From: Naegleria lovaniensis
Lineage: Eukaryota > Heterolobosea > Eutetramitea > Acrasida > Naegleriidae
DNA: 64,000 nt
Reading direction: 5' to 3'
NCBI RefSeq assembly: GCF_003324165.1
Contig: NW_025407888.1
Span: 18,121 to 82,120 of the forward strand
Shown here one piece after another: positions 25,973-49,732 of this stretch. Each line of letters starts with the position of its first letter. Position 1 is the stretch's first letter. A model generated the notes under the pieces. The model had not been told where the DNA came from, made no database searches, and saw nothing but the letters and a program-made list of their open reading frames with translations. The position numbers and the translations under genes are program-made.

Positions 25973-26009
25973 GAGGGCCCTTTCAAACCTGCAGCCGCAG
26001 CAAACAGCC
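25973..26009. repeat. Left TIR of P-like element
   Basis: 37 bp, the exact reverse complement of 29607-29643. It starts GAGGGCCCTTTCAAACC and is GC-rich relative to the surroundings. Confidence 0.92.
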
Positions 26010-26124
26010 ATTCAGCCAGGATAGTCCTCGCTGCCGAAGTTATTTTCGGATACAATCAACAGAATCCTTTGGCATCCGGTTGAAACAGGATTTTTGCGGC
26101 TGAGATAGGATTTCGATCAGGTGA

Positions 26125-29100: not shown

Positions 29101-29425
29101 TCATAATCTTGTTTTTACGTGAAATCTTTGGTTTGGATTTATCATTTTCGGATTGCATTCGGAAAGAAATCACTGCTTTGATGATGGATTTTGGAAGTGC
29201 AAATGACATGATCTCTTCATCATCAAATAAATTTAGAACAGCAATACTTCTGATAGCATTTTCTTCAAAAATACGAATTACTGAATTGATGTCTGATGGT
29301 GTGAATTTTATATCGGTAAGATAGTCATAGAGAAGATGAAGATCAGAATTCGTTTCGTGGGTGTAAGTTGATGTGGATTGGTTGTCTAGCTCCACATTTG
29401 AATTCATTTCGTTCAAGGATAACAT
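26125..29425 (-). CDS. P-like transposase, two exons, 1078 aa
   Basis: Exon 1 is 29425-28608, starting at ATG 29425. A 64-bp intron (28607-28544; GTAGAT ... TATAG) joins phase 2 to exon 2, 28543-26125. Exon 2 alone has no ATG at its start, which supports splicing. The N-terminal 80 residues resemble a SAM-like helical domain (FDDEEIMSFALPKSIIKAV). A Lys/Ser-rich linker follows. The RNase H-like core shows CLSIDATAIN (first Asp), YNISADFAAEH (second Asp), PDIRHLQRNL and MIENFYGVARQYCG, the last matching the ENFFGxIR region with the catalytic Glu of P/THAP9-type transposases. The C-terminus resembles a BAH-like reader module (SIGDYVLQLDENNHVF ... IKWEYRRDT ... VNEADCRLI). Domain names at both ends are weak. 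No THAP zinc finger is visible. Confidence 0.75.
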
Positions 29426-29606
29426 GCCAAAGCTTGTTCGGAATTGTTGTTGTTGCTGTTGTTGTTTTGCATTTTTTTATTGTTCAAAATTTTTTTCGTT
29501 TTAAAGCCAAAAACAACCGCCAAAATCCACAAACATCCGGATTCTGGAGGATTCTGGATTTCCACAAAGTTTGGGAAGTCAGCAGGAGCTGGCAGCCGTC
29601 CTTTTC

Positions 29607-29643
29607 GGCTGTTTGCTGCGGCTGCAGGTTTGAAAGGGCCCTC
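29607..29643. repeat. Right TIR of P-like element
   Basis: 37 bp, the exact reverse complement of 25973-26009, ending GGGCCCTC next to the right TATATTGC. Confidence 0.92.
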
Positions 29644-31962: not shown

Positions 31963-34737
31963 TTATTTTTCAAAGTAAATCTTCATGTGGGTTTCAATTT
32001 CTTGTCGATTCCTAAAAAGTATACCATTTTCCTTAACCTTCTTTACAGATTGTTCTTCCTCACCAGATTCATAAATGAAATACCAAGTGAATTGGACACC
32101 ACCATAGGTTACTGAGCTTTCAAGGTTTCCATCTTTGATGAACGTTAGATCGTCCTTTCGGGCTTGTAACAACTCTTCAGCTTTTGCTTCTTCAGTTCCA
32201 ACAATTCCGTGAAGTATCAATTCGAGCAACGAGAAATGATATTGCTCTGGAACGTTTTGAGTCCTTTTCATTGCCTTTCCTTCTCTATCTAAAACATAAC
32301 AACGTTCCAATAAATTTTCCACATCTGTGTTGCCATTACTGTGACAATAATGAGAATCAATAGTAGAAATTGTAGTTTTTTTCAAAAAGATTTTCGCTGT
32401 CCTCCCTTTGTACATAACAATAGCATAATCAAAGCTTGGGAAAGTTTCAGATTCTGGAATGAATAATACTCCTATTCCTTTCAAATAATTATTTCGATCA
32501 AGAGAACTTAAATCCTTTAGATCCAAGCTTGCATGTTTGTGAACGTAATATGATAACGATAACGTGGATGTTGTGGTCGTACTCAAGTTGTTTGTTACAT
32601 AGAATTCGCTATCTAATTGTCTACGAAGTCCATATTCTTGTCTCAACAAGTATTTTTTAAACATTGCTCCTTTCTCTGAATCAGAAATATTCTTGGGTAT
32701 TTTTGGCATGTCAAGTCTGCAGTAGTGATTGAATAAACATCTCTTTGCTGGGTCGTTAATAATAAAAAGTTTTCCATTAGAATCCTTGTACAATAAACCA
32801 ATATCGTATACAATTCCTGAAACATTATCAGGTCTTCCATTGAAAAGGCCAAGAGTAAAAAGATCTTCCAGTGTCTTTTCAAACTGTTCATTCTTACTTT
32901 TGTCCAATTTGCGAACTAATGAATCCAGTCTTCGATCATATATGTTAACTCTTTCGTTGAAAAATAGGTTGAAATCTTTATCACTACCCTTTTTGTCCTT
33001 CAAAAAGTGTGCCAAGTAATTCAATTCTCTTGGGTTTCTTCCTGTTACATGGGCTATTCTTTTATCCTTTGGATCCAAACCGAAGTCTGTGATAAGTGTT
33101 TCAAATTCTGTAGGTGTTGGAGGAATCATTCTAACCAATCTTTTTTCTTCTCCTCTTGGTAAGTTATTTTCAAAGGAACTATGAGCACATCCACAATAGA
33201 TAGTAACTGTGTTCTCCCCTGATGTAACTCCTGTCCATCTGGTAAAATCTTGGAAATATTCTTCACTAGCATGAATATTGTTATCAGTGTCAGGTATGAA
33301 TAATTCATTGTGTTCATCAAACAAGTAGAAAACCGATCTCTTGGATCCAAATTCTTTGCTCAAGTGTCGGAGTATATCTATAGATTTCTGTAACTCGATA
33401 ATTTGTGTTTGAGAGAGAATGTCACTATTCAACGAAAAGAATAATCTGCGCAAGTAGTTATTGGCGCCGATATTCTTTTTGTAGTCGTAATCCCTAATCC
33501 AGATATGACATCTTGGAACAAAAAGTACTGGAAATGAATTTACAAATGCATAGGCAGCTATTAAATAAAGTGTGTATGATTTTGAACTTCCATAAGGACC
33601 TGACAAAACCATTCCAGTACTTCCATTTACAAGTGTTTTCAGAACATCAAATCGTTGCTGAGTTAAAAGATATTTAGCATTTGGATTAAATGCTGTTGGA
33701 GACAATTCACGGTCTTTTGTTCCCAATACAGGAAGATCGATAAATGTTCCAATGAGTTTTTCTAGTTTTTTCATGTTTGTTGGATCATGTAAATTACGGA
33801 GATAGTCATATCTTGGATTTTCTCTTTCTTTTCTTAAATCTTCAGATATTTCTCCTTTAAACTTCCAAAGATCAAACAACTCGGATGGTATATTAATTAA
33901 AGAACCTCCTTCGCTGGCCTTTGTCAATTTGGTAGCAATCCACTCAGCAACGGCTTTGCAAGTAGATTTTGGTACTGAAGCAAAGTCCTTGTCGCTTTTT
34001 ATCATCTTGATGGCATTTTTTATACATTTTTCTTCTGTTATGCCTTTCACTCTTTCCTTCTCTATGGCAGTACCAATTTTGATGAGAGTTTTGCCATCCA
34101 ATGAAGAAACTTGATCAAGGCTCAAATCAGCACCTCCTTTTGTAATAGGTTCGCTCAATTTTTGAATGATTTGTTTACTCACTGGCTCCAATCGCCACAG
34201 TGAATATTGTCTGGTCATTAATTGGTTAAGCACCCAAAATACAACAGTTTGGCAAGTGTCGGAGAGTTGAAAAGTCATTTGGAAAACTCTTTCTTTTAAA
34301 TAGTTCTCAAGTTGATCAAGAGCAAAGTATACGTCCTTCTTCTGGATATCCTCAACAATGTTGTGGAGAGCTTCGCCATCAAAACAACTCTCATACAAAG
34401 GCTTCACATCATCAACCGACAAACCAGCACCCAAAGATTTAGGAGATGTCAATACTGATGCTACTTGTTGGGCATTCCAACTCTCGTAATCCATCAAATT
34501 GAGAGTAATTGGTTGAGAACGTATTTGGCCAAATGTGGTTGTTGTTGCTGATGTTGGATGATTCAACAATATGTTGTTATTGTTGTTCGGAACAACAACA
34601 TGTTGCAATGTTTTGTTTGATTTCATGGATGAAGAAGAATTCAAAACAAAAATATAGTTGCTGTTGATGATGCTCAATGTGTTGCTGTGGGAATTTAATC
34701 CTTTCAAGATCTTGTAATGGATGGTTGTTCTTTTCAT
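31963..34737 (-). CDS. CRN-like NTPase plus nuclease-fold protein, 924 aa
   Basis: Single exon from ATG 34737. The N-terminal 300 residues carry helical SAM-like repeats (WNAQQVASVL; GGADLSLDQVSSLDGKTLI). The central NTPase has a Walker A-like SGPYGSSKSYTL near residue 377, a Walker B-like FYLFDEHNELF near 470, and TGRNPRELNYLAHFL, the winged-helix/sensor segment of STAND-like ATPases in Crinkler-type proteins. The C-terminal 200 residues fit the restriction-endonuclease-like domain of that class (FPSFDYAIVMYKG ... KIFLKKTTIS). CRN/RHS-type proteins are thought to derive from transposon-linked nucleases; some act as secreted effectors. No secretion signal is seen here, so a role as a genome-conflict or transposon-derived protein is the more cautious reading. 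It lies directly next to the large transposon. Confidence 0.65.
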   Translation of the reverse strand: MKRTTIHYKILKGLNSHSNTLSIINSNYIFVLNSSSSMKSNKTLQHVVVPNNNNNILLNHPTSATTTTFGQIRSQPITLNLMDYESWNAQQVASVLTSPKSLGAGLSVDDVKPLYESCFDGEALHNIVEDIQKKDVYFALDQLENYLKERVFQMTFQLSDTCQTVVFWVLNQLMTRQYSLWRLEPVSKQIIQKLSEPITKGGADLSLDQVSSLDGKTLIKIGTAIEKERVKGITEEKCIKNAIKMIKSDKDFASVPKSTCKAVAEWIATKLTKASEGGSLINIPSELFDLWKFKGEISEDLRKERENPRYDYLRNLHDPTNMKKLEKLIGTFIDLPVLGTKDRELSPTAFNPNAKYLLTQQRFDVLKTLVNGSTGMVLSGPYGSSKSYTLYLIAAYAFVNSFPVLFVPRCHIWIRDYDYKKNIGANNYLRRLFFSLNSDILSQTQIIELQKSIDILRHLSKEFGSKRSVFYLFDEHNELFIPDTDNNIHASEEYFQDFTRWTGVTSGENTVTIYCGCAHSSFENNLPRGEEKRLVRMIPPTPTEFETLITDFGLDPKDKRIAHVTGRNPRELNYLAHFLKDKKGSDKDFNLFFNERVNIYDRRLDSLVRKLDKSKNEQFEKTLEDLFTLGLFNGRPDNVSGIVYDIGLLYKDSNGKLFIINDPAKRCLFNHYCRLDMPKIPKNISDSEKGAMFKKYLLRQEYGLRRQLDSEFYVTNNLSTTTTSTLSLSYYVHKHASLDLKDLSSLDRNNYLKGIGVLFIPESETFPSFDYAIVMYKGRTAKIFLKKTTISTIDSHYCHSNGNTDVENLLERCYVLDREGKAMKRTQNVPEQYHFSLLELILHGIVGTEEAKAEELLQARKDDLTFIKDGNLESSVTYGGVQFTWYFIYESGEEEQSVKKVKENGILFRNRQEIETHMKIYFEK

Positions 34738-34882
34738 TCTTCCATAAATTCAAATATTGAATGAACGAAAGAATTCTTTTTGATGATCAGGTTGCGAGCT
34801 TGAAACTATGAAAATGAATGAAACGCATTTTTTGTTGGGGGCAAATTTGATAGAGTTTCGTTTTTTGCCTTATTGCATCCTT
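34738..34882. promoter_or_regulatory. Upstream region of CRN-like gene up to transposon edge
   Basis: 145 bp between the CRN-like ATG and the left inverted repeat of the large element, ending in the putative CTT target duplication (34880-34882). AT-rich, no gene. Confidence 0.35.
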
Positions 34883-34927
34883 AGAGATCCGGGGAATCAG
34901 GTAGAATCAGGTTGAATCACATCACAT
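34883..34927. repeat. Left TIR of the 12.6-kb element
   Basis: Starts AGAGATCCGGGGAATCA and contains TTGAATCACATCACAT at 34912-34927. Pairs with 47399-47448 in inverted orientation. Confidence 0.65.
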
Positions 34928-35669
34928 CACATCATAATAAATCACATTTTTGAGATCACAATTTTTAATAATACCCGAATTTTATTGCGCGGATTTGAAA
35001 TTGTTTGAACGTTTTCATAGTCAATCGGTCATTTTCAAACAAAAGCAAATGCTCATTAATCGATTCATCATCATCAAATCCATTCGTGGAATATTTATAT
35101 TCACCAACAAATATAACGAGACGAAGCCATTGATACAAGTAAGATTGAGTCGCCAGCATGAGAACGCGTGAACCTTTGTCGTAATCTTCCGATACTTTCA
35201 ACCAACCTTATCTTACTCTGTTGTTGTTGAATGGATTCGTTCAATTTCCATGATAGGCATAGCAAAACTGCCAGCGAAACAAACTTCCGGGCTTCGAGTA
35301 TTAAGATTTCATACTCGACAAAAAAATTTAAATATTATTTATTGGCCCTTCGGTGCCTCAGTACGTTACATTAGACGTTCGTTTAGTAAGGATACAACTT
35401 CAGAATGTCAAATGTTTTTGTAAGGATATTTCAAATATTAACAGGTTTCTTGCTTGTTTTGAGCAACTGCTATAAATGGAGCGGGTTAAGTCCATCGATG
35501 AACAGATGGCGAAAATAATGCAAGGATTGTTCTATTAATGTTTTTTGAAATATCAATGGTTAGTAATATTGGGTTATCAATAATCATATTAATAGGTCAC
35601 GAATTAGTAAATAGTGCTGATTAGTCAATAAACAAATATATAAGATTACCAGTTTGTTCTTCATAGGAT
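34928..35669. other. Left subterminal DNA of the large element
   Basis: 742 bp. A protein-like minus-strand frame (35201-34965, about 78 codons, SEDYDKGSRVLMLATQ ...) has no ATG near its start and could be an exon or decayed fragment. A short hairpin with TACTCGACAAAAAAAT lies at 35294-35327. No other gene is supported. Confidence 0.35.
35294..35327. repeat. Hairpin followed by TACTCGACAAAAAAAT
   Basis: TCGAGTAT (35294-35301) pairs with ATACTCGA (35311-35318) across a 9-nt loop, followed by an A-run. The 16-mer TACTCGACAAAAAAAT recurs at 42796-42811, also after a small hairpin. Confidence 0.5.
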
Positions 35670-38609
35670 TCATGTCATAATAGTCGTGGTACAGCAGGGT
35701 GGAGAGCAATCCTGGATCCAATAAAGGGTGAGATGTTTTTTTCTTAATCCTCTAACCACTACATGTTTCTTGTCGAGTTGATGTTTGGTCAAGTGGATCG
35801 TAAGTGCTTGTCCAATTTCATCGTCGTCATGAACAACGTGGTTGTGAACTTTGTTCATCTTTTGGTTAGTTTTTCTTCTTGGCTTGGCTTTGACGGTTGT
35901 ACGTGGTTTCTTGGGTTGTATTCTCATGCTTGTTTTCTCAGGTGTTAATGGCGTTGGTCGTTCGGTATTAATTTCTGGTGGCTTTTTCTCTGGTTTTTCA
36001 ACATTTGAATTATTGACGGTTTCAATTGGTGGATGGTGTGTGTTTAAAGTAATGTGATGAGGGTGCTGTGTACTTTCCTCGTGGTTTTGTATGTATTCAT
36101 CGAGTATGTTATTTAATTGTTGGAGGGTAAAGATAATGTAATGCGTTTGTTGTTCAATCTTTGCTAACCGTTTTTCCAAGCTGTGGAGCATGTCAGAGTC
36201 TTTTCTGTTGATCATCTTGCGGTATTTTTTAAGGGCTCGATACCCGCTTCTCATGGACCCGCAACCCTCTTCGCAAAGTTGACGCTTTTGCGTTAAAAAA
36301 ACAACGCAAAAATTGCGCACCTGCAAAAAAAAAATTTCGAAACAAAGCAAGGTTTATTTTTCATCACGGCTTCATTAAATATATTGATTTACGTTCTTGT
36401 GCATCGGAATGAAATAACTCTTCCCCTTTCTAGTAACAGTAACACAAGGAACCAGAGGCTCTTTGTTGGACACTTCAATCACAGACCTGTCTGACAAATT
36501 CTGCAAAGTCACTGTGGAATCCGTGAATGATTTGATTTTGAAGTATTTTGCAGGAGTACAAGAAGTATCAGCCACAACATCTCTCTCTTTCTTCAATACG
36601 AAATGACCACACACACATTCCGAAGGTTTGAGTTCACTTAAACCAAATATATCGCATAACTGCGCCATATCAAAAAACATAATAGAATACCTTGCAGAAT
36701 TTGATGAAATGAACGGCTTGGTCAATGTGAAGTTTAGATTTTCCCCAACAAAGGCTGTATTATGTGCCAATGGACCATATAGGCTTGCATTTCGCACCAT
36801 ATCACTAGCTACATGGAAGTTCATTGTAGCCTTTGCAATACCTACCATCTCTTGATAATCCTCCAAAATACCTCTTAGTTCCTCATTAATTGAATTCAAA
36901 TCAGCTATATTAATGGCATCTGTTAACTTGTCAATTACAACAACCATTCTCTTAATAATTTTATACTTCAACTCAATCATACTGAAATTCTTAACATCCT
37001 GAAGTAGATCTAGATAATAGTGAATAATCATATATATCTCCATTGCCTTAAGGTGTACTAAATTTTTGGAAACTGATCTCGGGTGTCTATGTAAGAACGA
37101 AGGAAATTTTTGCTTGAGATATTCCTTGTCGAACTCGTCCCAATATTGAAGTGGAATCATCTCCATCATGTCACGCATAATTCCTTCATACAAGTTATGC
37201 ATTGAATCATAGGAGCATATTGTAGTGGGAGTTGGTTTCCAACTCTGGTCTAATATTGGAGAATATCCACGAACACCCCATGACAACTCTTTTCCCGAAA
37301 TATTATTCCAAAAATGTCGATCTCTCAAACCAAAAACAATTCGTTGATTACTAGAAATGTCTCTCCTAAGTGGATATCTAACTTGAGTAGTTCCTCCTGG
37401 TAACTGAACAGGTTCCCCTCGAATCTCGCATAAATGGCAAAAATAATACCCTGATTTTTGAAATAAGAGAATTTCAGACCTTGCAGGTAAGTCAGCAATT
37501 ACTCTTTCTAATCTCAATGATATTTGTTTAAATTGATCATTGAACACATTCAAATCATCCATCATGATTTTCAAACACAAATTGATTTCTTCTTGAGATG
37601 GTTTGTTAGGAAATAGTAGCCACAAAAAGTTATTCTTGCGCTTCTTTCTTACATTTGGTTTCATCTCATTGAATGTGACAGAGAATTCGTAAAAGCTTTG
37701 CTGACTAGATTTAAACGGAGCAACACCGTCACCAAATAACGTCATAGTTTTTCCTCCTTCATCTACGAATTTTTTGTGAATGTTTTTGTAGATGTCTCCG
37801 TCACAACGATCTTGGATAAGTTGGGGATCACGATTATCAAGTTTAAATTGATCCAAAAATTGTGGCTCTCTGAATATCCTTTCCTCGAATTGGAATTTTA
37901 ATGGGCGTAAAAAGCAATGAGTTTTGATATCTTTCCATAATTTCCCACATTTAGGACAGGATTTTTGGTCTGGATTTTTTTGATACGTCTGACAATGAGT
38001 GCACATTAGAATTTTCTTTGTCTTTGAAGACAAAAGGAAATACTTATAGAACCCTGTTAATGTCAGCTTATCTGAAAGTTCTTGTTTATCACTCTCATGA
38101 ATGAGTTGAATGGCTTCTCGAATTAGATTTAAAACCATTTTGAGACAATTTTCAGAGAGAGAACTTGTTACTGCAAACTTGAGAATTTTTTTCATCAACG
38201 TATCAACATTTACATTGACATTATCATTCACAACGCTTGAAAATGAATGGGAAGAGAGAACTTCTTCATCTAGTATGCCATCATCTCCATCACTCCAATA
38301 TTCTCTGAAAAACTGTAACAGGTCGTCTTGTTCTGATTGTGCATTGGATGGATTATTTTCATTCGTCGGAGATGAATCATGAGAACCTGAACAGAGATTT
38401 TCCAGACCCTCTGCACTACAATTACATTGTTGATTTTCTACTGTATGGTTCTGAGAAGAGTAATTTATATCTATTCCACCAATATCTAACAAAGAATCAT
38501 CATCAATGCAATGAGCAACAGTCTTACGAAACTTATTTACAGGCTCATAATTTGGCTCGTGATTGTATTTTGAATTGACAATTGAACTAGACCCTTCTAC
38601 AGTTTGTTT
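35670..38609 (-). CDS. Tnp2/CACTA-type transposase
   Basis: The main open frame runs 38609-36375. A phase-0 intron (36392-36321; GTAAAT ... TTTTGCAG) would join it to 36320-35670, adding a coiled-coil (EKRLAKIEQQTHYIIFTLQQ) and basic tail, total about 955 codons. The N-terminal half has a CxxC zinc-ribbon pair (CTHCQTYQ ... CPKCGKLW). The core shows the Tnp2 landmarks FGDGVAPFKSS (first Asp), IADLPARSEIL followed by a Cys-x-x-Cys (YFCHLCEIRGE), and YDSMHNLYEGIMRDMM (third acidic site). Tnp2 catalyses cut-and-paste transposition in CACTA/En-Spm elements. The start is unclear: an in-frame ATG at 38675 is cut off by a TAG at 38612-38610, which also reads as a possible splice acceptor. The element may be defective or have an upstream exon. 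Confidence 0.75.
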
Positions 38610-38675
38610 CTACATTGTAAACAACAACAAGAGTTTGGAATTAATTGGAGGAAAACTAATGGGTTTGTAACTCAT

Positions 38676-39468
38676 CAAACATCCATCCTTTGGAAAAGGA
38701 TTGGTGTTTGAGGGATTTTCTGCATATTTTGTCATTAGACTTTATTGAGCAGAGTCCCGAGCATTTGAAAAGGGGTGTAGAAGGTAAAAAACTCCAAAAA
38801 CCGCTCAGCGGAAAAAAAGGAGAAAACCAGAGAAACGCAAGGAAGTAAGAAGGAAGTGATGAAGAAGAGATGGATTGTGATCAACTCACATCATCATAAA
38901 TAAACCAAGTATCAAAGGTGGTGATAATGTCACAATAATGTAAAATAAATAAATATTAAAATAAGGTTAAAAAGTAAATGTTCAATTACTTGTCGAAAAG
39001 ATTCGAACAAGGCAGTCCCGCACTGTCATAATGTCCTTCCTTACCACAAGAACATTAAGGATCAGCGAAAAAGGAACTTGAAAAGCTTAAGAAAGCATGA
39101 TAAGGGTGGGAGTGCGATGGGTGGGAAGTCAGTAAGCAAAGCAAAGGGAGACGAAGTACTAGTATGCAGAAAATTTTTTGAGCATGAAAATTATTTCGAA
39201 TACTCAACCCAAACTCTTTTATTGTTTACAATCGAAACATTCCTGCCCTTCACTACGTTCAGAACAAATCATGGCGCTTCAAACCAAATTGCTTCATTAT
39301 TTACAACAACACAAAACAAGAACGTTGATTGTTTAACGATATAGATTCCATTAAGTGTCTCCAATTACGTAAATTCGTCAAGAAATATCTATCGTTCCCA
39401 AATTTTCGATCCACTTGCAAATTGGACATTTAACGGTTGTAAAACAAGATTCAACATTACTCAAAAAA
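38676..39468. other. Divergent region between Tnp2 gene and its partner
   Basis: About 790 bp, AT-rich with an A/G-rich stretch near 38770-38900. No supported gene. It probably holds promoters for the two divergent element genes. Confidence 0.4.
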
Positions 39469-40872
39469 ATGAAAAGAACAAAATCACACCCTGGCAAGAA
39501 TGCAACAAAGAAAACCAAAGCAAACGATAGTACACTTTCAACACAAGACACTTCCTCCGATTTAGAGCAAATAATTTTATTCGAGGCCAAAAAGCCAAAT
39601 GAAAAACAAGCTAAGTTAATTGCGAAACACTCTGAAAATGCTTTATGTAATAGTATTCCTCAACTTGAGAAATATTTAGACTTTTTGCAAAACATTCACA
39701 ACAAGGATATTGACATTACAAACAAAGACTCTGTCTCTGCAACATACATTCTGATGAATCAATTTCTCAAACAAGGAGAAAAGGTTTTTGTTGGTATTCA
39801 AGCTGGTAATCCAGAACGCTTGCGACAGTCAATTTTGCAAACTTATAGCTCGGACAAAGATTTTTCGGAACGAATATGTGCTGCAGTCAAGGCTATCAGT
39901 GTAAGCCTTTTGAAACAAAAAGGTTTAATTGAATCCACATGCCCACCTGTGAGTTCAAATCTCAAAGTTGGAGATTTAGTTGAAATTATTGAAAAGGGAG
40001 AGAATTGTTACTACAAGATTGGTAAAGGAAGAGTTCAATCACTCACTTCAACTAATTGCAGTTTAAATGACATTATATTTCACGTTCCATCCTTCGTTCA
40101 AGATCAAAAGAAGACGATTTTTGATATTTCATGCCTTTCATTAATTGAAGATCGAACCAATCATGCTCCTATGATTCAAAATGCTTTTTCTACGGTTCAG
40201 CGAGGATGTACTCCAGTCTCCTTATTTTCCATGAATTATGACACTGAAGTCGATGATGACAAAATTGATGACAATGAAGTTCTCTCTATAACTCCACCGG
40301 AAATTTCGGATTCAAGAACAAACTCAAATTCAAATGTTGAAGAGAGTGATTCTCCTTTGCAAAATGAGCCCAAGTCTACGGAACCTACTGATTATAAGAA
40401 TTTCGCTAGTGATATCTTTTTCCTTCAGCAAGTCAAAGACCTCAGAGAGAAAAACGAGGCCTTATCATTGGAAAACAAACAGCTAAAAGAATTAATCATC
40501 AAATTGAATAAGCCATTGAACGCATTAATTGCTCTTCAATTACAATACCCGAATATTCTTCCAAGCAAAACAATTTCTGTCACATATGGTGCTAATGTGA
40601 AACAAATACCCCCAAATTTGGTGTCCAGAATTATCAACAGCAACAAGACGGCTCGGCTTGGCATTGTTAGCAATTATTTGTTTGATAAGGATTATGTTCT
40701 TTTGAAAGATGATCAGAAAGATATTGTAATTGATTGCATTTTAGAATGTACTGAGGTGCCATTGGATAAGTGGAAAGCGGAACGAATATTGATGAATTTA
40801 AGTCGAACTTTAAAACACAACGCATCAAAGAAAGAGCATGAATCCAAAAGCAAGAGCAAGCAGTCGTTGTAA
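39469..40872 (+). CDS. Coiled-coil element-encoded protein, BEN-like C-terminus
   Basis: 467 residues from ATG 39469. The frame is open upstream without ATG. Order of features: a basic N-terminus (KRTKSHPGKNATKKTK), a helical region, an SH3-like stretch (LKVGDLVEIIEKGENCYYKI ...), an acidic Asn/Ser linker, a coiled coil (QVKDLREKNEALSLENKQLK), then about 85 residues (ARLGIVSNYLFDKDYVLL ... DKWKAERILMNLSRTLK) whose helical pattern resembles a BEN DNA-binding domain. This last call is weak. CACTA elements commonly encode a second, DNA-binding protein (TnpA) beside the transposase. By position, divergent from the Tnp2 gene, this is the natural candidate for that role. Confidence 0.6.
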   Translation: MKRTKSHPGKNATKKTKANDSTLSTQDTSSDLEQIILFEAKKPNEKQAKLIAKHSENALCNSIPQLEKYLDFLQNIHNKDIDITNKDSVSATYILMNQFLKQGEKVFVGIQAGNPERLRQSILQTYSSDKDFSERICAAVKAISVSLLKQKGLIESTCPPVSSNLKVGDLVEIIEKGENCYYKIGKGRVQSLTSTNCSLNDIIFHVPSFVQDQKKTIFDISCLSLIEDRTNHAPMIQNAFSTVQRGCTPVSLFSMNYDTEVDDDKIDDNEVLSITPPEISDSRTNSNSNVEESDSPLQNEPKSTEPTDYKNFASDIFFLQQVKDLREKNEALSLENKQLKELIIKLNKPLNALIALQLQYPNILPSKTISVTYGANVKQIPPNLVSRIINSNKTARLGIVSNYLFDKDYVLLKDDQKDIVIDCILECTEVPLDKWKAERILMNLSRTLKHNASKKEHESKSKSKQSL

Positions 40873-43012
40873 AATCTTGAATTACATAAAAAATTTGTTT
40901 TAAAAAAATTCTCAAAAGCTTGTAGTAGCCTCCACGTTCAACAATCACATTCATTCATCAACAGATGCCGCTTGTTCATCTTATATGCTGCTAGAGCTTG
41001 CTTTGCGTAAGTGTACGTGTTTCATTGATACAGGTATGATCTCCAAATCATCCAAAGATATCGACACGTTTCATGTTTGCTCGAAATGGAGGACTGTCTT
41101 TGCTATCATTTGCCTTTTGTCTCTTATAAAGGACAAAGCTGGCTTTTATTGATAAAGTTTTCTACGGTAAGCTCTTTTTCACAAAGTTGTTGTGAATTTC
41201 TTGAATCTGATCAACGATAGATGCTACAAAGGACCTTTAGCATCATCAAACATTTTGGCAAGACGAATGAATGTTATGTTGATGATAGGAGAAGATATTG
41301 TTGAACAAACAGATAGGGTTTGTAGTTATTGCTTGATTTGAAAGTAATTCTGTTCGTGCTGTTTGAAAAGGTAATTCGTTTCATTTACGGCCATTGTTAT
41401 TGTTGTGGAGGATGATTAAACTTGTTCACCTGTTAAACCGGTAAGTATATCCAACCATGTACTAATATCAACAACATTATTCGTTGTTTATTTATTTCCT
41501 TCTAGAGTAACATGATCGGTAGGTTGTTAGATTTGCTGAGCAGATTTTTGTTTATTCAAAATGTTTTAGTTGCTTCTTCTTTATTAGTTGTTGTTTTGAA
41601 TATCCATCATTACACTCTGTACATAGAATGCGTTGGTAGAGATTGGTTGAGGATATTGAAGCAAGTTCTAACATCCAGATAATGAAGGGATATCTTGAGG
41701 TAGGGATTGAATTTAATGATAATCAATTGAGGATAGGGATGATAAGACTTCAAATATATTTGATCCACAGTTGGTTGTTTGATTATTCGTACCCTCTTGT
41801 CCCACTATGCATTGAGAGTTAAAGGATTGTAGTTGCAACAATAACCAAACAACCGCTTTCTTAACATTTGTCAATGGTAGAACTGAAAAAGATGTTATAT
41901 TATCGAGTTATGGAATTTCAAGCTGAATTTGCTTGGTATTATGAAGGATTATTTGTAGGTTGTTAATTATTATGGATTGATTAACAGAGCTTTCAATGCT
42001 TTAGAGTTTGATGTTTAAACATTTTAAGCCTGGAGTGTATTTAGATCATCGAGGCATTTGTTTGTCATGAATAGGGATTGGTTTGATTGATGTTAAAATA
42101 TGACTTGTTGTGAATAATAATGTCAGTGCAATAGAGATATCAAAACAAATGACAAATTGATATATCATTTATATGAATTTGAAGTGTGTTTTGATTGAAC
42201 TATTGATCACTATGATTATTATGCCGCAACTGAAAAATATTTTAACTGAATGCAAAACCAACATCATGATAAACAAATGAAAAGATGATATGAAATACAA
42301 GTATTGAATTAGATGATATTTCAACCCGATAGCTTAAATTATTCAAAAGTAAGTAATGTCAATCCAATTCATCTTTCATTTACCATTTATATTCATTAAA
42401 TTGGCTACTTTAGCTTTGTTGTTGGATATAAATTAGAGAATTTGGATGAATGAATGTGAGGAAAATGGATAAATATACAAGATTTGAAGATTTGGAGTGG
42501 TTTGAAGAGATTGAATTAGTGAACGATTGGTTGAGCGAGAATGAAAGAGAAATTTGAGAAATAAGGAGCGTTAATTTTTCGTCAATTATTTTTATTATGA
42601 AACATCATAATAATTGACGTTAATTTGACGCGTGAATAATGAAATCGTTAATGTGGAAAATTAACGCTTTTTATTGACGTTTTTTCGTCAATAATTAACG
42701 CTTTTCAAGCGAGAATAAAATTTTTTTCGTTAACTTTTTGATTGTAATTTTTGACGAAAAAACGTTAAAAATTAACGTCAACCGCGAGTAGCGGGTACTC
42801 GACAAAAAAATGGGTAATGTTAACTACCTGATCAAACTGTAGTTTATGCTTCAACTAAAACGAAAACACGTCATGTAATTTCCTTTTTGAATCACACTTC
42901 GGAATTGTTATATTACAGCCATGTTGTTGACAATATTACAAAAATTGGCTTCCTAGAATTCGTGTAGAGTTCATCATCATTTATATATTAAAAATTATTA
43001 AAATTCATCGTG
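40873..43012. other. Long non-coding stretch inside the large element
   Basis: 2.1 kb with no open frame of note on either strand. It is AT-rich, with many GATTG/GATGAT words, and ends in the TTAACG/CGTCA hairpin cluster. It could be decayed element DNA or subterminal repeat DNA. Confidence 0.45.
42568..42811. repeat. Cluster of TTAACG and TGACG inverted repeats
   Basis: About 240 bp densely packed with CGTTAA/TTAACG and CGTCA/TGACG words in both orientations, able to form several hairpins. Examples are CGTCAATTATT paired with AATAATTGACG around 42580-42619, and ATTGACG paired with CGTCAAT across a T-run near 42672-42692. It ends with CGAGTA-GCGGG-TACTCG and the 16-mer TACTCGACAAAAAAAT. Clustered short repeats of this kind are typical transposase-binding subterminal regions. 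Confidence 0.6.
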
Positions 43013-45906
43013 ATGGGTAAAACTTTAGAGATTCAAGAACACCTTCCTGCACTTCATTCTTTACATACCTATCAATACGAAGGCGATCAATATTATTCTG
43101 CCGATGAAATTGTTGGATCGTTCTTTAAAAAGGAGAAAAATCAAAAAATCTGCAATATTATCGAAAGAAGCTATGGCAAACACATCACGATCAATAATTG
43201 CCAACAGCAAGAGATTGGGTTTCCAAAGGTAAAAAAGTCCGCAATTTTGTTAAGCTTGGCAGCCGTTATTGGAACTCTGTTAAAGTTGTCGAAGAAAGAT
43301 CATCATGATTTATTAATTCAACACCTGTTCCAAACGCATCCCAATCACAACAGTGATCACTATGATACACGTATGGATGACGATGAATTATTTGATAATT
43401 CAATGGAAGAAATTTTCAATCAGCCTCAAGTCGAGGACCAAGATGAAGCTTTCAATCAATTGGTTGCTGATGCTGCATCCTATTTTGTTGACGAGAACTC
43501 TAATGAAAATGATGATGATATTTATGAAAATAATATTATAGTAGAAGCTTCTGATATAATTAATGATGCAAGTCAGCAACATGAACTTAATACAACCTCA
43601 CAAGATTACTCTCAAACAGTAGATAGCATGGAAAAAGCAAACACTAATCCTAACCTTTCTCAACAGTGGAACGATCAATGGAACGCTTCTCAAAATTGTA
43701 TACAATATTCTGGGCTTAAGTATGTCGAACCATTCATTTTGGCAGACCAGACTTGTGAGACATATTTGTCCCAATTTGCACTTTGGAACTATTTCAAGCC
43801 TCAACAGCAATCACAGCCTCAACAATTCCCAACACAACCAGTTTGCTCTCAACAATATAATATTGAACAATGGAAAAATTGTTATACAACTGATACCGCT
43901 TTACAATCCAATACATGTGACTCATTCAACCATTCTCAAGCACAATCTGATAATGATCAACAAGTAGAATTGAAATATTGGGAATGTGCTTGTTGTAAAC
44001 ACCAAAAAGTCCAAGCATGTCCTCACAAATACCCTGGTATTCAATCAAATCAAGACAATTACAACCGTGGAGCGAAAGATCGAGCAAAAGAAATAGTGTC
44101 TATATTTGAGAAAATGTTAGGTAATTTAGGACATGATGTACATGCATGGCTGGAATGTTATCTTCAAACTGATGAAGGTATTAAAACAGTAATCCAAGAA
44201 TTAGAGTAAAATATTAGATACAGCCATCGTTATCAAAAACTGAAAGAATATCTAATTGAAAAGAAAGATGTAACTATTGTGCAATATTGGCGAGATAATA
44301 ACTTGATTTCTGATGTTACATATCATAACTTACGAAAAGAAGTCAATTTAATGACATTACTTCCGACAAGGAAAGAGATGACAACATCGAAACAATCACT
44401 AAATGAAAAGTTGAGAAAACTTTCAAATTACGATGTCCAAGTTCAAACTACATTGGATATATTATAGACTTAGATCAAGCCATATTTTATATTCTGAAGC
44501 TATGTATGTCATTAGGGAAAAAATTACCCAAGAAAATATTTTTTAAAATTGGGGTAGATGGTAGAGAAATTAATGGAGTTAAACAAGTTGCAGTTGCATT
44601 GGTTCCACTCAATTTAAGAGATGTATTTCCATCGCAGGCTGTTTATTCTGTGTTTTATATTGGGTTATTTCAGATGAAGGAAACAAAAGAAAGTATCAAA
44701 GAAACAATTGGAACGCTTCACGATGAGATTGAGCGTGTTTTGCAAAAACAATATTTTGGGAAGCATCAAGTTTGCCTTTTTTATGTTTCAGACATGCATA
44801 ATGTAGGCATGACGTTCTCATTTGATTTATGTCCCTATTGTATGGCTCAAACTATTGTAGATTTTGCATCAACTCCACGCGACTCTCTTGACGGCCAGTT
44901 ACCTTTTTCTCCATCACAAACAATACTATGTGCTCTTCATATCAAACAGAGGCTAGTAGAAAATGTTATTGGTTATATGGCATCAACAACTTACAAATAT
45001 GAGATTCAGAAAAATATACAAACATTACATGGATTGGAAACATTTAATTGGAAAGAGTTCCACGAACGAGTATCGAATTATGGAATTTCTCAAACCTCAG
45101 CACGATCATCAACCAAGTCATGTATGCTGTCGGGAGATCATTGTAACACTATTTTACAAAATATTGAGAAAGTTGTTGATAATATTGAACCAAGCACCAA
45201 ACAAAAATATTTACAAATTCTGAAATTGTTGCGAAATATTATCATTATTATTGAAATGCATCAAGATAACGAAAATAATGACAATGTATTGACAGCAAAT
45301 AAGATTGTGGAATTGGACAAACTGATAATGCAATTCTTAGTTGCGTGTTTTTCAATATGGACTCAAGGAATTAAAGCTCATTATTTCCATTTTATAATTC
45401 ATGTACCCTCAATAATGAGCTCTCTTTTCAAAGAAAAATTATCACTCTCGATTTTGAGTAATCAGGGATTCGAACGGTCTCATTTATTTCACCATGCAGT
45501 GTTTAATCGAATTATTAACAATGGAGGAGATCGTACTCAAATACACCCAACCAAACAATTGCTATTGTGGCAATGGAGAAAGGTATTAGTCGCAATTGAC
45601 TTGAAGGAAAAAACAGGAGAAACATATTGGCATGAAAAACGTTTAAAAAAGCTTTATTCTTGGGATGCAAGTCATGTCAAACCACAAAAGGAATTGTATC
45701 AATGGTATGATGCTTCTTTAGTGGACCCAACCATAATTACGGATCGTGATAATTTGAACATGATGATTCAAAAGATCCAAGAAAATGACAAGGAGAACAG
45801 GAAGAAGCAAACTTCCAAAAATACAGACACCAATGCCTTCGCTGGGAGAGTAACTGCAACAATGTCACACAAGAAACGGAAAGGATGTCCTAGCAATGAT
45901 GAATGA
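43013..45906 (+). pseudogene. Second RNase H-fold transposase, broken
   Basis: One ancestral frame broken twice. Segment one (43013-44209, Asn/Gln-rich, with ECACCKHQKVQACPHKY) stops at TAA 44207-44209, yet the same frame continues open to 44467 (KLKEYLIEKKDVTIVQYWRD ...). A one-base shift near 44455 then leads into the third part (to 45906). The core shows KIGVDGREINGVKQVAVAL (first Asp), YVSDMHNVGM with CPYCM, and LCALHIKQRLVENVI, a pattern seen in large uncharacterised transposase-like families of animals and protists and distantly like Tnp2/KDZ enzymes. It is distinct in sequence from the Tnp2 gene in the same interval. Whether it belongs to the same element or is an older insertion is unresolved. 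Read-through or splicing could still rescue it. Confidence 0.6.
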
Positions 45907-45908
45907 AA

Positions 45909-46583
45909 TCAAAAACTTTCAATCCAACAATCTCCATTCTTTGACTGTACCCAATGACTGAGGTGTGCATAATATAATTCGAATGAGGTGTCGTAGGAAA
46001 TGATCAACTTGGATGCAATGCAACGATATTGAACAGTTTCAAGTTCTGAGCGAATGGGCCTGTTGAATCTCTTTCTAAGGCTGTCAATTACATGCTTTTG
46101 GTCGACACTCATATAATTCTTTGCCCAAGTCCCATCCCCGAAAGAAGGAAAGTTTGGATAATTGAATTCGTAAATGATGTGACGAGTCCGTTCAATGTCA
46201 CCTTCTCGGTTGATCCAAGGAGAATATTGCTCCACACGAACATACTTCTCGGGCCCCATAGTCTTACACATATACATATCAAAAACGGATTCTTTACACT
46301 CACCTATTGGCAATCGAGTCCGTGCTGGGCCGTTGCAAGGAGAATTCATGTCCCACAAAAAGTTGAAAAGCTTGAGTTCCATACGAGCAGCTTGTTTCCG
46401 ATGGGAGTTGTGAGTAAAATGGATTAAATTGAGGGGGCTTGGATGCATGGTGATTGGTATCTTATCCACTTTAACAAAGGCCTCCAATGGATGATATTTG
46501 TAACGACGACGCTGCCTTTTTGGTGTACTTGATATCTTTGAAGGTTGGGAAGGTATGATCTTCTTTGATTGCTCTTTTGGCAT
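45909..46583 (-). CDS. Unknown element-associated protein, 224 aa
   Basis: ATG at 46583; the open frame extends to about 46688 without another ATG. It has a basic N-terminus (KRQRRRYKYHP) followed by a compact, Cys- and Trp-containing region (LWDMNSPCNGPARTRL; SVFDMYMCKTMGPEKYV; CWIESF). No family is recognised. Its stop lies only 2 bp from the stop of the broken transposase on the other strand, a tight convergence typical of mobile elements. Confidence 0.5.
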   Translation of the reverse strand: MPKEQSKKIIPSQPSKISSTPKRQRRRYKYHPLEAFVKVDKIPITMHPSPLNLIHFTHNSHRKQAARMELKLFNFLWDMNSPCNGPARTRLPIGECKESVFDMYMCKTMGPEKYVRVEQYSPWINREGDIERTRHIIYEFNYPNFPSFGDGTWAKNYMSVDQKHVIDSLRKRFNRPIRSELETVQYRCIASKLIISYDTSFELYYAHLSHWVQSKNGDCWIESF

Positions 46584-46688
46584 TGTGCTGGAGAGTGTTG
46601 TTGCTGTTAATGATGATGCGATCAGTGATCGGTGTTGAAGCAATGAAGTTGATGGTAAGTAGATGAGGTTGTGAATGATGCTGATCAA

Positions 46689-47398
46689 GAAGTGCTGATG
46701 ATGGTTGATCGGGGTGACCGTTTATATTTGTTTTGTTTCGATTGTTCTTGCAAGCGACATGGTAGCGTCCCAAACATTTTATTTTTTTTCAATTCCGGAT
46801 TGCCAAATCCATCCTGCAACTGGGTCTATTGGCTTGTCTTGCTATGGCTCAGTTTCTCTCCGATATCTTGATTGGAGTTGAGAGGTGAAGCCTCATACAT
46901 TGGTTGTTATTACCGTTCAAACAGGTTTCCAAGAAGTCATGTGTTACCTGGATATGATTCAAACGGATCTGCAATTACAAGCACAGCATCGGCGTTTTTT
47001 TGAGAATGACAGCGAATATTCACCAAGGTTCAATAGATTTTTTGATAAATTTTCGTGAAGCCTCATACGTTGGTTGTTATTACCGTTCATTTTGAAATTG
47101 TCAAAGATAACAATGAAAGATAGATACGTTGAATGAACAATTCGTTACAAAATTAAGAAAACTCCACAGAGCGAAGTTGTTGTTTCGTTGGTGTTTCAAA
47201 ATTTTGTCTTTAATTAGGCACGTTCACCTGAACTTCTTCAGTTGGTTCATGAGAAACTCAGAGAAAGAGCAAGAATTCGAGAGAAAAGAAGAATAGACGA
47301 GTGTTTATTGGAAACTCTGGCTGGCATTATTCGGGAATAAATGTTCTTGAATTTTTTTGAGTGTTCCTGAACACCGTCGAAGAAAATTCAACCCAAAA
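46689..47398. other. Right subterminal DNA of the large element
   Basis: About 700 bp without a supported gene. It contains a 35-bp direct repeat pair (46885-46919 and 47055-47089, one mismatch). Confidence 0.45.
46885..47089. repeat. 35-bp direct repeat pair, 170 bp apart
   Basis: GTGAAGCCTCATACRTTGG continuing into GTTATTACCGTTCA occurs at 46885-46919 and 47055-47089 in the same orientation, differing at one base. Confidence 0.8.
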
Positions 47399-47448
47399 AT
47401 GTGATGTGATTCAATGTGATGTGATGTGATGTGATTTCCCGGATCTCT
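47399..47448. repeat. Right TIR of the 12.6-kb element
   Basis: Contains five ATGTG/GTGAT units and ends CCCGGATCTCT. Reverse complement of the left end at 16 of its outer 17 positions. Flanked outside by CTT (47449-47451). Confidence 0.65.
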
Positions 47449-47660
47449 CTTGTTGTGGGATGATCTTTGAACTATAATCATTCCCAAAGTAAATCAACTG
47501 ACATCCTATATTGATGTATGGATCATCTTGAATTATTTGCACTGTTTTACAGGATAGTAATATAAAGTTTAATTATTCAAACGTTGTACTGGTGTTGGTA
47601 TTACTCTTTTTGAAATGTCAAATATTGCTGTCAACGTTTTGCAAAATTCAATATTACAAA

Positions 47661-49732
47661 ATGAAACGATTGCAAATAGAGGCTTCCTTGCCAGATGCTG
47701 ATCATTCTCTCAACGAACAACAACAACAAGAACCACAAGAATCCAGCACTGGATTAATAATTTCTTCATCATCATCGGATCCTTTACAGAAAAAGATTAA
47801 ACTTGAAACCATTGTAGAAAACCATCAAGATGTTACTCTCTCCCAACAAACCACTCGGATTTGTTCATCTTCTCTTGCCAAGTTATCGTTTGATGAAATT
47901 GAGTTGATTTTGGAATATTTATTGACCGGAGAACTATTAATGATGAGCCTTTGTTCGAAATGGTGGTATCAATCGTTTGTGGTCTTGTCAAGGAAAAATT
48001 CTGTAAATATTATTATATTCATGATGATGGCGATGATTGGGTACTTACGAAAGCCTTGAGAAGTGCCAAATCTCTTTCCATATCGTATGAAAATATTGAC
48101 CAAGTGAGAACCATTGTTGATGAAATTGTAGAACATGGAGACTCTCTCAATGACTTTTCGAAGCGATTGGTGTTTGATTCGATAGATCCTACAGATATTT
48201 ATGAAATTTTGAGTGCCCGTGTTGTGAAGCAAGAGTCGACAACAACAATTGTTAAAACAGCTGTTTTGGGAGTTGTAGATGATTTGGAAAAGATAAGTCT
48301 TACGGATGGAGAAAGTGACGAAAGTCATGATCAAGTTGCATTTAAACAAGTAGAAATTAGGGACATTCCTATTGGTTTTGGTCTCAAAGAATTGTCACTT
48401 CACGGCATATCTTTAAGTAGAACAGATTTGTATAGAATCTTGTCCAAATGTTGTGCACTCGAAAAGTTAGATCTGTATGGTCTTGAACAAGCTTATCATC
48501 AACCCTTTACCAGTGGCAGAGGTCGTGGAGGAAAAGGTTTACGTAGAGGAAAATCTACTAAAATTGAAGAGGACAATGATGAATTTTTTAATGGTCAAGA
48601 AGGACAAGTATATATTCCAGTATTTGGATCTCTCAAATCATTGACTTCAAATGCAGTATTTGACTATGATGCAGGGGAGAAATTTATGGTCGACATTTTG
48701 AAACTATGTCCTAACTTGGAAGAGCTGCACTACATTTATCACTATCCTGTCGATGATTCATTCTTGAGACATGTTTCCAAAATGTGTCCAAAACTCAAGA
48801 AATTTGTTAGTGAAGGTTATGATGGAGCAACACCGATTGAACTAGAGGTCACCGATGAAGGTCTTTATGAATTGATGAAAGCACTTGCCCAATTGGAACA
48901 TATTCATTTTCATCCATGTTGCAACATTTCAGGAGAAATTTTTAAAAAACTTGGTGAATTCTCTCAATTGAAACATTTTGATGTCAACAGAACTAGTTAC
49001 AACAACGGCTTGGTGGATTTGACATTTGACATTCATTTTGGAGGAGGAGTCCTTTCCAAACTCGAATATATCGATATTGGAGGTTGCTATGATCTTGAAA
49101 CACTTGAAGAATTTGAGAAATTCGTCACAACTCTACGATCTGTTGCTCCTCATTTGAAAAATTTTGGACGGTTAATGTTTTGTGAAAGCAGGAGAGGAAT
49201 CGATAAGAAAAAACTGGTAGAACTCTTCTCTGAAACGATCACTCATTTAGATGTTGACCGTGCGGCAACAGACTTGGCATCTATTTTGCCCAAAAATCTT
49301 ACTTCATTAAGTATGGAACTCACCCAAGAATTTGTCAACAAGAATGTTGTGACACAGTTACAACCAAATCGTGGCCTTAAAAAGTTAACCCTTCATCTAT
49401 CGGATGACAAACCAGAAATGGACTCAGTTATTGAAACATTGGCTGTTAAAATTTATCCATGTGTGACACATCTTCGATTATATCACACACGTTACGGAGA
49501 TAACTATGATGTTTTGGAGAAGATTTTAAGCAATCCCAATGCATGGCCCAATTTGAGATTTATGGACGGTGTATCGAATGTGAAAGGAATTTTAAAAGTT
49601 AGACCAAATATTCGATTGAATCTCGAAGATGATGCTACAGATATCTTGAATGAAAATTGTTGTAGAGACGATGAACGTTCTGCTTTCTATTACAAATGGT
49701 TGATTGCTGATCAACCTTTTGATTCTTGGTAA
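47661..49732 (+). CDS. F-box/LRR protein
   Basis: About 690 residues, starting at ATG 47661. The N-terminal 70 residues are low complexity. An F-box-like segment follows (LAKLSFDEIELILEYLLTGE ... SLCSKWWYQSF). The C-terminal 500 residues carry irregular leucine-rich repeats of the cysteine-containing/AMN1 type (CCALEKLDLYGL; CPNLEELHYIYHY; CPKLKKF). Near 47990 the first frame (47592-48059) must pass into the second (47951-49732) by a one-base shift, next to an A-run; both sides are clearly coding. F-box/LRR proteins usually recruit substrates to SCF ubiquitin ligases. It is convergent with the PIN-like carrier, whose stop is about 70 bp away. Confidence 0.78.

What the first reader, a model, noticed from the sequence alone, without database searches (positions are those of the whole stretch)
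34883..47448. 12.6-kb interval with matching ends and CTT duplication: candidate giant CACTA-like element
Inverted ends (16/17 outer matches plus an inner block), a flanking 3-bp repeat and a Tnp2-type transposase agree on a CACTA-like origin. The ends begin AGAGATCC instead of CACTA. The cargo includes a divergent putative DNA-binding partner, a second broken transposase and an unknown ORF. This is the strongest candidate for an undescribed mobile system here.
Basis: partly seen in the sequence, partly recalled or inferred. Interest (0 to 1): 0.78.

Follow-up and report, generated by a model that had tools for sequence, protein, structure and literature searches.

The report
Large two-transposase DNA transposon
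A 12.6-kb stretch of what looks like an amoeba genome is bounded by matching inverted ends and a 3-base duplication and carries what look like cut-and-paste transposase genes, so it is very probably a large jumping gene that works like the plant CACTA elements, with unusual end letters and a second, different transposase inside.

Summary
The ends 34883 and 47448 match 16/17, are flanked by CTT, and carry a subterminal motif (ATCACATCAC) found nowhere else in the window, in opposite orientation at the two ends. The 17-bp match plus CTT alone is not beyond chance (8 of 30 shuffles), but the 50-bp match plus CTT exceeds all 40 shuffles. Without the interval the flanking genes lie about 350 bp apart, an ordinary gap here.

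Best reading: one inserted DDE DNA transposon that works like a CACTA (EnSpm) element, with a Tnp2/Plavaka-like transposase encoded divergently from a possible DNA-binding partner, asymmetric subterminal repeats and a 3-bp duplication. It is not filed as CACTA: the ends are AG..CT, and no Pfam transposase model matches; the Tnp2 call rests on recalled motifs. A second ORF has the D-D-C2C-H-H3H-E order shared by RAG1, Transib and EnSpm; scans for nested ends around it gave only background. Its gene is broken or spliced.

No copies or empty site could be tested, since no eukaryote genomes are held. EnSpm-type repeats are already reported from Naegleria, the likely host genus. New variant of a known kind, moderate interest.

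The parts
34880..34882 (.). CTT, left copy of the putative target-site duplication
34883..34899 (+). outer terminal inverted repeat, left (AGAGATCCGGGGAATCA)
   Evidence: 16/17 complementary to 47432-47448
34895..34952 (+). left subterminal repeats (AATCAGGT at 34895 and 34905, overlapping ATCACATCAC at 34916 and 34921)
35670..36353 (-). ORF, 227 aa stop to stop, downstream of tnpA; coding score 0.189 in its own frame but 0.207 in another
36375..38609 (-). tnpA: 744-aa ORF, putative Tnp2/Plavaka-like DDE transposase (in the 743-aa numbering of 38606 downward: D293, D372, C390/C393, H470, H598, D602 where a second His is expected, E622); first Met at residue 138, a 5' exon is likely
   Evidence: roles of the residues recalled
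38610..39459 (.). region between the two divergent ORFs, presumed 5' exon(s) and promoters
   Evidence: layout only
39460..40872 (+). putative DNA-binding partner, 470 aa, coiled-coil-like stretch and a BEN-like C-terminus by eye only
   Evidence: highest coding score among the element's ORFs scored (0.274)
40873..42991 (.). 2.1 kb AT-rich stretch with no ORF of 100 aa; palindromic GCGTTAA/CGTCAAT block at 42568-42781
42992..44209 (+). tnpB 5' part, 405 aa, Q/N-rich with a Cys/His cluster (CACCKHQKVQACPH)
44407..45906 (+). tnpB core, 499 aa, second DDE transposase candidate (D51, D129, C142/C145, H178, H328/H332, E356)
45909..46721 (-). ORF of unknown function, 270 aa; weak coding score (0.089, not the highest of its six frames)
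46885..47089 (.). two copies of a 35-bp direct repeat (34/35 identical), 170 bp apart
47394..47436 (-). right subterminal repeats (4 ATCACATCAC in inverted orientation)
47432..47448 (-). outer terminal inverted repeat, right
47449..47451 (.). CTT, right copy of the putative target-site duplication

Best explanation
34883-47448 is one inserted cut-and-paste DNA transposon of the DDE type that works like a CACTA/EnSpm element. The tnpA product pairs and cuts the AGAGATCC ends; the divergently encoded partner (39460-40872) binds the asymmetric ATCACATCAC repeats next to the ends; insertion through a 3-nt staggered cut gave the CTT duplication. The second transposase candidate (tnpB, 42992-45906), unlike tnpA in sequence and with the motif order shared by RAG1, Transib and EnSpm, is either a resident gene of the element or a decayed element once inserted into it. 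Shown: matched ends, flanking CTT, subterminal repeats, open frames, an ordinary gap between genes once the interval is left out. Inferred: enzyme identity, roles of the proteins, mobility as a unit.
For: 50-bp inverted arms plus CTT exceed all 40 shuffles. Terminal 100-bp match far above 200,000 random draws. Subterminal motif exclusive to the two ends, inverted, 2 versus 4 copies, like the asymmetric subterminal repeats and 3-bp duplication of the soybean CACTA element Tgmt* (PMC2613891, passages). Without the interval the flanking ORFs lie 349 bp apart (about 358 from first Met to first Met, positions); of the 13 other gaps between the long ORFs that I listed by hand and that hold no transposon, 10 are 56-545 bp and 3 are 885-1829 bp. 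In tnpA, the partner and both tnpB parts the ORF's own frame has the highest codon score of six (0.147, 0.274, 0.245, 0.159), with a narrow margin for tnpA (next 0.117). tnpB carries D, C(2)C, H, H(3)H, E in order: 32 of 2000 shuffles of it do, and it is the 1 of 24 stop-to-stop ORFs of 250 aa or more in the window that does; this is the motif order given for the CMCT clade (PMC12730594, passages). Strand order in both low-confidence models suits an RNase H fold (weak, my reading).
Against: No second copy and no empty site seen. No Pfam, NCBIfam, PHROGs or PDB match identifies either transposase. The relaxed CMCT signature of tnpA also appears in 291 of 2000 shuffles, so it is no evidence alone, and its strict form fails. 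AlphaFold models are unusable (mean pLDDT 36.5 for tnpB and 35.5 for tnpA), and Foldseek with the tnpB model gave no match at E <= 0.001 (the tnpA model was not searched). Ends are AG..CT rather than CA..TG.
Confidence: 0.72

Rival explanations
1. The interval is an outer Tnp2-like element (tnpA plus partner) into which a second element carrying tnpB and the 45909-46721 ORF once inserted, now without recognisable ends. (This is one of the two branches left open in the best explanation.)
For: tnpB is unlike tnpA (no BLASTP similarity). Its frame is interrupted at 44209-44407. A 2.1-kb AT-rich stretch without long ORFs separates the halves and contains palindromic blocks.
Against: A scan for inverted ends (first 3 letters exact, 20 bp, left 40870-43020, right 45900-47420) gave at best 16/20, and 13/20 with a duplication of 4 bp or more; 60 control placements outside the two elements gave 15-18 and 12-15, so this is background.
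Confidence: 0.4
2. The two ends are separate insertions or remnants of one family that happen to face each other.
For: No copy of the whole unit was available; the window holds one pair only.
Against: The same CTT flanks both outer ends, the repeats are in opposite orientation, transposase-like genes lie between, and the interval accounts for the oversized gap between the flanking genes.
Confidence: 0.06
3. The element is mobilised by tnpB and belongs to a Transib/RAG1-like or unnamed lineage, tnpA being the passenger.
For: tnpB meets the strict D-D-C2C-H-H3H-E order and tnpA does not. The ends are not those of EnSpm.
Against: tnpB's reading frame is interrupted; tnpA's core is open. The 3-bp duplication and subterminal repeats suit EnSpm or Plavaka; a 5-bp duplication for Transib is recalled, not tested.
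Confidence: 0.12
4. Chance: no transposon is bounded by these ends.
For: A 17-bp match plus 3-bp repeat appears in 8 of 30 shuffles, and two matches to the end pattern with up to 3 mismatches in 8 of 100.
Against: Longer match and subterminal repeats exceed every draw of the controls; the repeats occur only at the two ends.
Confidence: 0.03

Closest known systems
CACTA/EnSpm elements, e.g. soybean Tgmt* (20.5 kb; PMC2613891, passages)
   Same: short imperfect inverted ends, asymmetric subterminal repeats, 3-bp duplication, a transposase and a candidate DNA-binding protein, large size
   Different: ends AGAGATCC instead of CACTA; no Pfam match of tnpA to any transposase model; second transposase candidate inside
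Plavaka (A and B), CMCT clade (PMC12730594, passages)
   Same: 2-3 bp duplications; Tnp2-related transposase by recalled motifs; CATCA letters occur in the subterminal repeats here
   Different: Plavaka ends are TGT..ACA or CATCA..TGATG; none of the 12 CATCA..TGATG pairings at these ends has a 2-3 bp duplication
Transib / RAG1-type transposases
   Same: tnpB has D-D-C(2)C-H-H(3)H-E in order; an HVPxI-like stretch before the Glu is recalled from RAG1
   Different: no sequence match to RAG1 or Transib among PDB chains at E <= 10; the duplication here is 3 bp
CMC-EnSpm repeats of Naegleria lovaniensis (38 copies, 69,762 bp; PMC6125883 Table 3, seen)
   Same: probable same host genus and same broad class
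   Different: no sequences or ends are given in the passages seen, so identity with this family could not be tested

Membership tests
CACTA/EnSpm | ends 5'-CACTA (or CAC..GTG) | tested here: not met
   ends are AGAGATCC..GGATCTCT
CACTA/EnSpm | 3-bp target-site duplication (2-5 bp in the clade) | tested here: met
   CTT on both sides; no empty site to confirm
CACTA/EnSpm | subterminal repeats at both ends, asymmetric | tested here: met
   2 versus 4 ATCACATCAC, none elsewhere in the window
CACTA/EnSpm | transposase matching the Tnp2 family | tested here: inconclusive
   no Pfam transposase match; only weak zinc-ribbon and similar matches, best E 0.031 for the core; motif order recalled from the family
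CACTA/EnSpm | second protein that binds subterminal repeats | not testable with these tools
   divergent 470-aa ORF is a candidate
[quoted passage not shown]
   C(2)C present; no H(3-4)H anywhere in tnpA, H598 and D602 instead
[quoted passage not shown]
   C142/C145, H328/H332, E356; 32 of 2000 shuffles do so too
[quoted passage not shown]
   AG..CT; feature from PMC12730594
Plavaka | ends TGT..ACA or CATCA..TGATG with 2-3 bp duplication | tested here: not met
   outer ends are AGAGATCC; 12 inner CATCA..TGATG pairings lack a duplication
Transib/RAG1 | sequence or fold match of tnpB to RAG1/Transib | tested here: inconclusive
   no phmmer match; model too poor for a fold test

The most novel reading that the evidence does not exclude
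A lineage of eukaryotic DNA transposons with AGAGATCC ends that stably encodes two DDE transposases of different CMCT-type lineages, one Tnp2/Plavaka-like and one RAG1/Transib-like, possibly dividing the work of cutting and joining or acting on the two unequal ends.
Probability: 0.12. Interest if true: 0.7.

Novelty: new variant of a known kind. Interest (0 to 1): 0.42.

Why it matters
If the unit is confirmed, it adds an amoeba lineage with non-canonical ends to the CACTA- and RAG-related transposons, and a second, RAG1-like transposase would help trace how these enzymes diversified. If tnpB proves to be a decayed insertion, the element is an ordinary large CACTA-like transposon with unusual end letters.

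Tried and rejected
Whole-genome search for other copies: no genome is held for this window. Relatives of tnpA and tnpB in viral contigs and genome contigs, of the partner and of the neighbouring P-like transposase in viral contigs: none confirmed; with a single protein these scans reach close relatives only, and both collections are viral or prokaryotic. tnpA in phage records by tblastn at E <= 0.1: none. The end pattern in viral contigs gave 35 contigs, each with a single match, none with the subterminal motif within 60 bp inward and none matching five of the element's ORFs (tnpA, partner, both tnpB parts, 45909-46721) by tblastn at E <= 0.01: taken as chance. Rfam at gathering threshold: nothing. 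Nested ends: around tnpB best 16/20, around tnpA plus partner best 17/20 without duplication; 60 control placements gave 15-18, so background. CATCA..TGATG ends inside the subterminal repeats: rejected, no duplication. Structure prediction without relatives: unusable; the Foldseek list for tnpB (392 matches at E <= 10, best E 0.06, splicing endonuclease, Tdp2 and others) was disregarded; the tnpA model was not searched. Similarity of the partner to the 290-aa protein of the neighbouring P-like element is a 36-column match at E 0.016 and was not pursued; partner versus tnpB 5' part gave E 0.002 over an acidic low-complexity stretch and was set aside. Literature searches on two-transposase or RAG-related elements gave comparators only; PMC9587614 (passages) reports Kolobok from Naegleria, not pursued.
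Full report
What is in the window. The host looks like Naegleria: GC 36.6% (37% is published for N. lovaniensis and N. fowleri, PMC6125883 passages) and arrays of a leucine-rich repeat that I recall from that genus. The tools hold no eukaryote genome for it, so the name is an inference, and no copy-number or empty-site test was possible.

The ends. Left: CTT|AGAGATCCGGGGAATCA at 34883. Right: TGATTTCCCGGATCTCT|CTT ending at 47448. Further facts lift it. The 50-bp arms match 36/50 with the CTT, while 40 order-2 shuffles reach at most 32. The terminal 100-bp pieces share 31 inverted 9-mers and no direct ones; 200,000 random draws (pairs closer than 200 bp skipped) reach at most 11 (repeats inflate the figure). 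The 10-mer ATCACATCAC is found twice at the left end and four times, inverted, at the right end and nowhere else. Finally, the flanking ORFs (31963-34749 minus, first Met 34737; 47532-48059 plus, first Met 47661) would be 349 bp apart without the interval by the limits used, or about 358 from first Met to first Met (positions). I listed 16 long ORFs or ORF groups by hand; of their 15 gaps two hold transposons, 10 of the other 13 are 56-545 bp and three are 885, 1240 and 1829 bp. GC of the element (0.350) equals that of its flanks (0.352, 0.349), so composition neither helps nor hurts.

Contents. tnpA (36375-38609, minus) is open for 744 codons; in the 743-aa numbering its first Met is residue 138, upstream of the recalled motifs, and acceptor-like sites before the ORF, seen by eye, suggest a missing 5' exon. 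By eye it carries the order that I recall from Tnp2/Plavaka proteins: FGDG (D293), VIADLPA (D372), C390-x2-C393, SMHNLYEG (H470), N-x-H (H598), GPL, FVGEN (E622) (positions). Pfam at E <= 10 on the core gave only a zinc-ribbon model at E 0.031, over the C390-C393 stretch; the full ORF gave five weak matches, mostly zinc ribbons, E 0.076-0.77; the PDB gave nothing relevant. No H(3-4)H is present; Asp 602 stands where I expect the second His, and the signature relaxed to allow it arises in 291 of 2000 shuffles. The margin of its codon score over other frames is narrow (0.147 against 0.117). So tnpA is a probable, not a proven, Tnp2 relative, and may be inactive or divergent.

The partner (39460-40872, plus) is oriented away from tnpA and has the highest coding score of the element's ORFs scored (0.274). 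It has a coiled-coil-like stretch (weak DivIC/CCDC85 matches). In CACTA elements the DNA-binding proteins of different families share little similarity (PMC2613891, passages), so lack of a match is expected and uninformative.

tnpB (42992-44209 and 44407-45906, plus) is a second transposase candidate. Its core has D51, D129, C142-x2-C145, H178, H328-x3-H332 and E356, the order that PMC12730594 gives for the CMCT clade including RAG1 (passages); 32 of 2000 shuffles show the part of it that I tested (D, C2C, H, H3-4H, E), and of 24 window ORFs of 250 aa or more only tnpB does. I recall HVP-x-I before the catalytic Glu in RAG1, but phmmer finds no RAG1 chain with the whole core or two pieces at E <= 10, and the AlphaFold model is too poor for a fold comparison. 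Its frame is interrupted; 51 GT-AG pairs would bridge the gap, none with a strong donor. tnpA and tnpB share no BLASTP similarity. The best nested ends around tnpB, 16/20, or 13/20 with a 4-bp duplication, lie within the range of 60 control placements (15-18 and 12-15), so a resident gene and a decayed nested insertion both remain open.

How it probably works. Shown: matched ends, duplication, repeats, open frames. Inferred: tnpA cuts at AGAGATCC, the partner loads on the subterminal repeats, and a 3-nt staggered insertion gives CTT. This is the Spm/En logic described in PMC2613891 (passages).

Comparison and novelty. It works like a CACTA element, but it should not be filed as one: the end letters were tested and not met, and the Tnp2 match is unproven. 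A 20.5-kb CACTA element with a 3-bp duplication exists in soybean, so size is not special. N. lovaniensis has 38 CMC-EnSpm repeats annotated (Table 3 of PMC6125883), and DNA elements make up 1.12% of an N. fowleri assembly (PMC6831594, passages), so this class is known from the probable genus. Searches for Naegleria with CACTA, with EnSpm, with transposase and terminal inverted repeats, and with RepeatMasker and transposable elements (3, 5, 4 and 4 papers, all listed) showed no title or abstract start that describes this element; two searches listed only 20 of 3,999 and 8 of 593 papers. Only open-licence papers are held. The unusual ends and the second transposase candidate make it a new variant of a known kind.

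A neighbour serves as a positive control: 25973-29643 has 37-bp perfect inverted ends and an 8-bp duplication TATATTGC, encloses a P-element-like protein (recalled motif; no Pfam match) and a second ORF, and by eye splits a leucine-rich-repeat frame. It shows that DNA transposons with intact ends are present in this region.

Noticed in passing
window 25973-29643: A second transposon: 37-bp perfect inverted ends (GAGGGCCCTTTCAAACC...), 8-bp duplication TATATTGC, an 824-aa ORF that looks like a P-element-type transposase (recalled; no Pfam match) and a 290-aa SAM-like ORF (by eye); it interrupts a leucine-rich-repeat gene.
   Followed up: partly
window 42568-42781: Block of palindromes built from GCGTTAA and CGTCAAT in the AT-rich stretch before tnpB; function unknown, perhaps a remnant of a small inserted element.
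   Followed up: partly
window 35312 and 42796: TACTCGACAAAAAAAT, a 16-bp exact direct repeat inside the element, near the left end and before tnpB.
   Followed up: no
window 46885-47089: 35-bp direct repeat, 34/35 identical, 170 bp apart, near the right end; best other place in the window 22/35.
   Followed up: partly
window 31963-34749: 928-aa P-loop protein with a weak DAP3-like match (E 0.0054) next to the left end; resembles Crinkler-type ATPases by eye.
   Followed up: no
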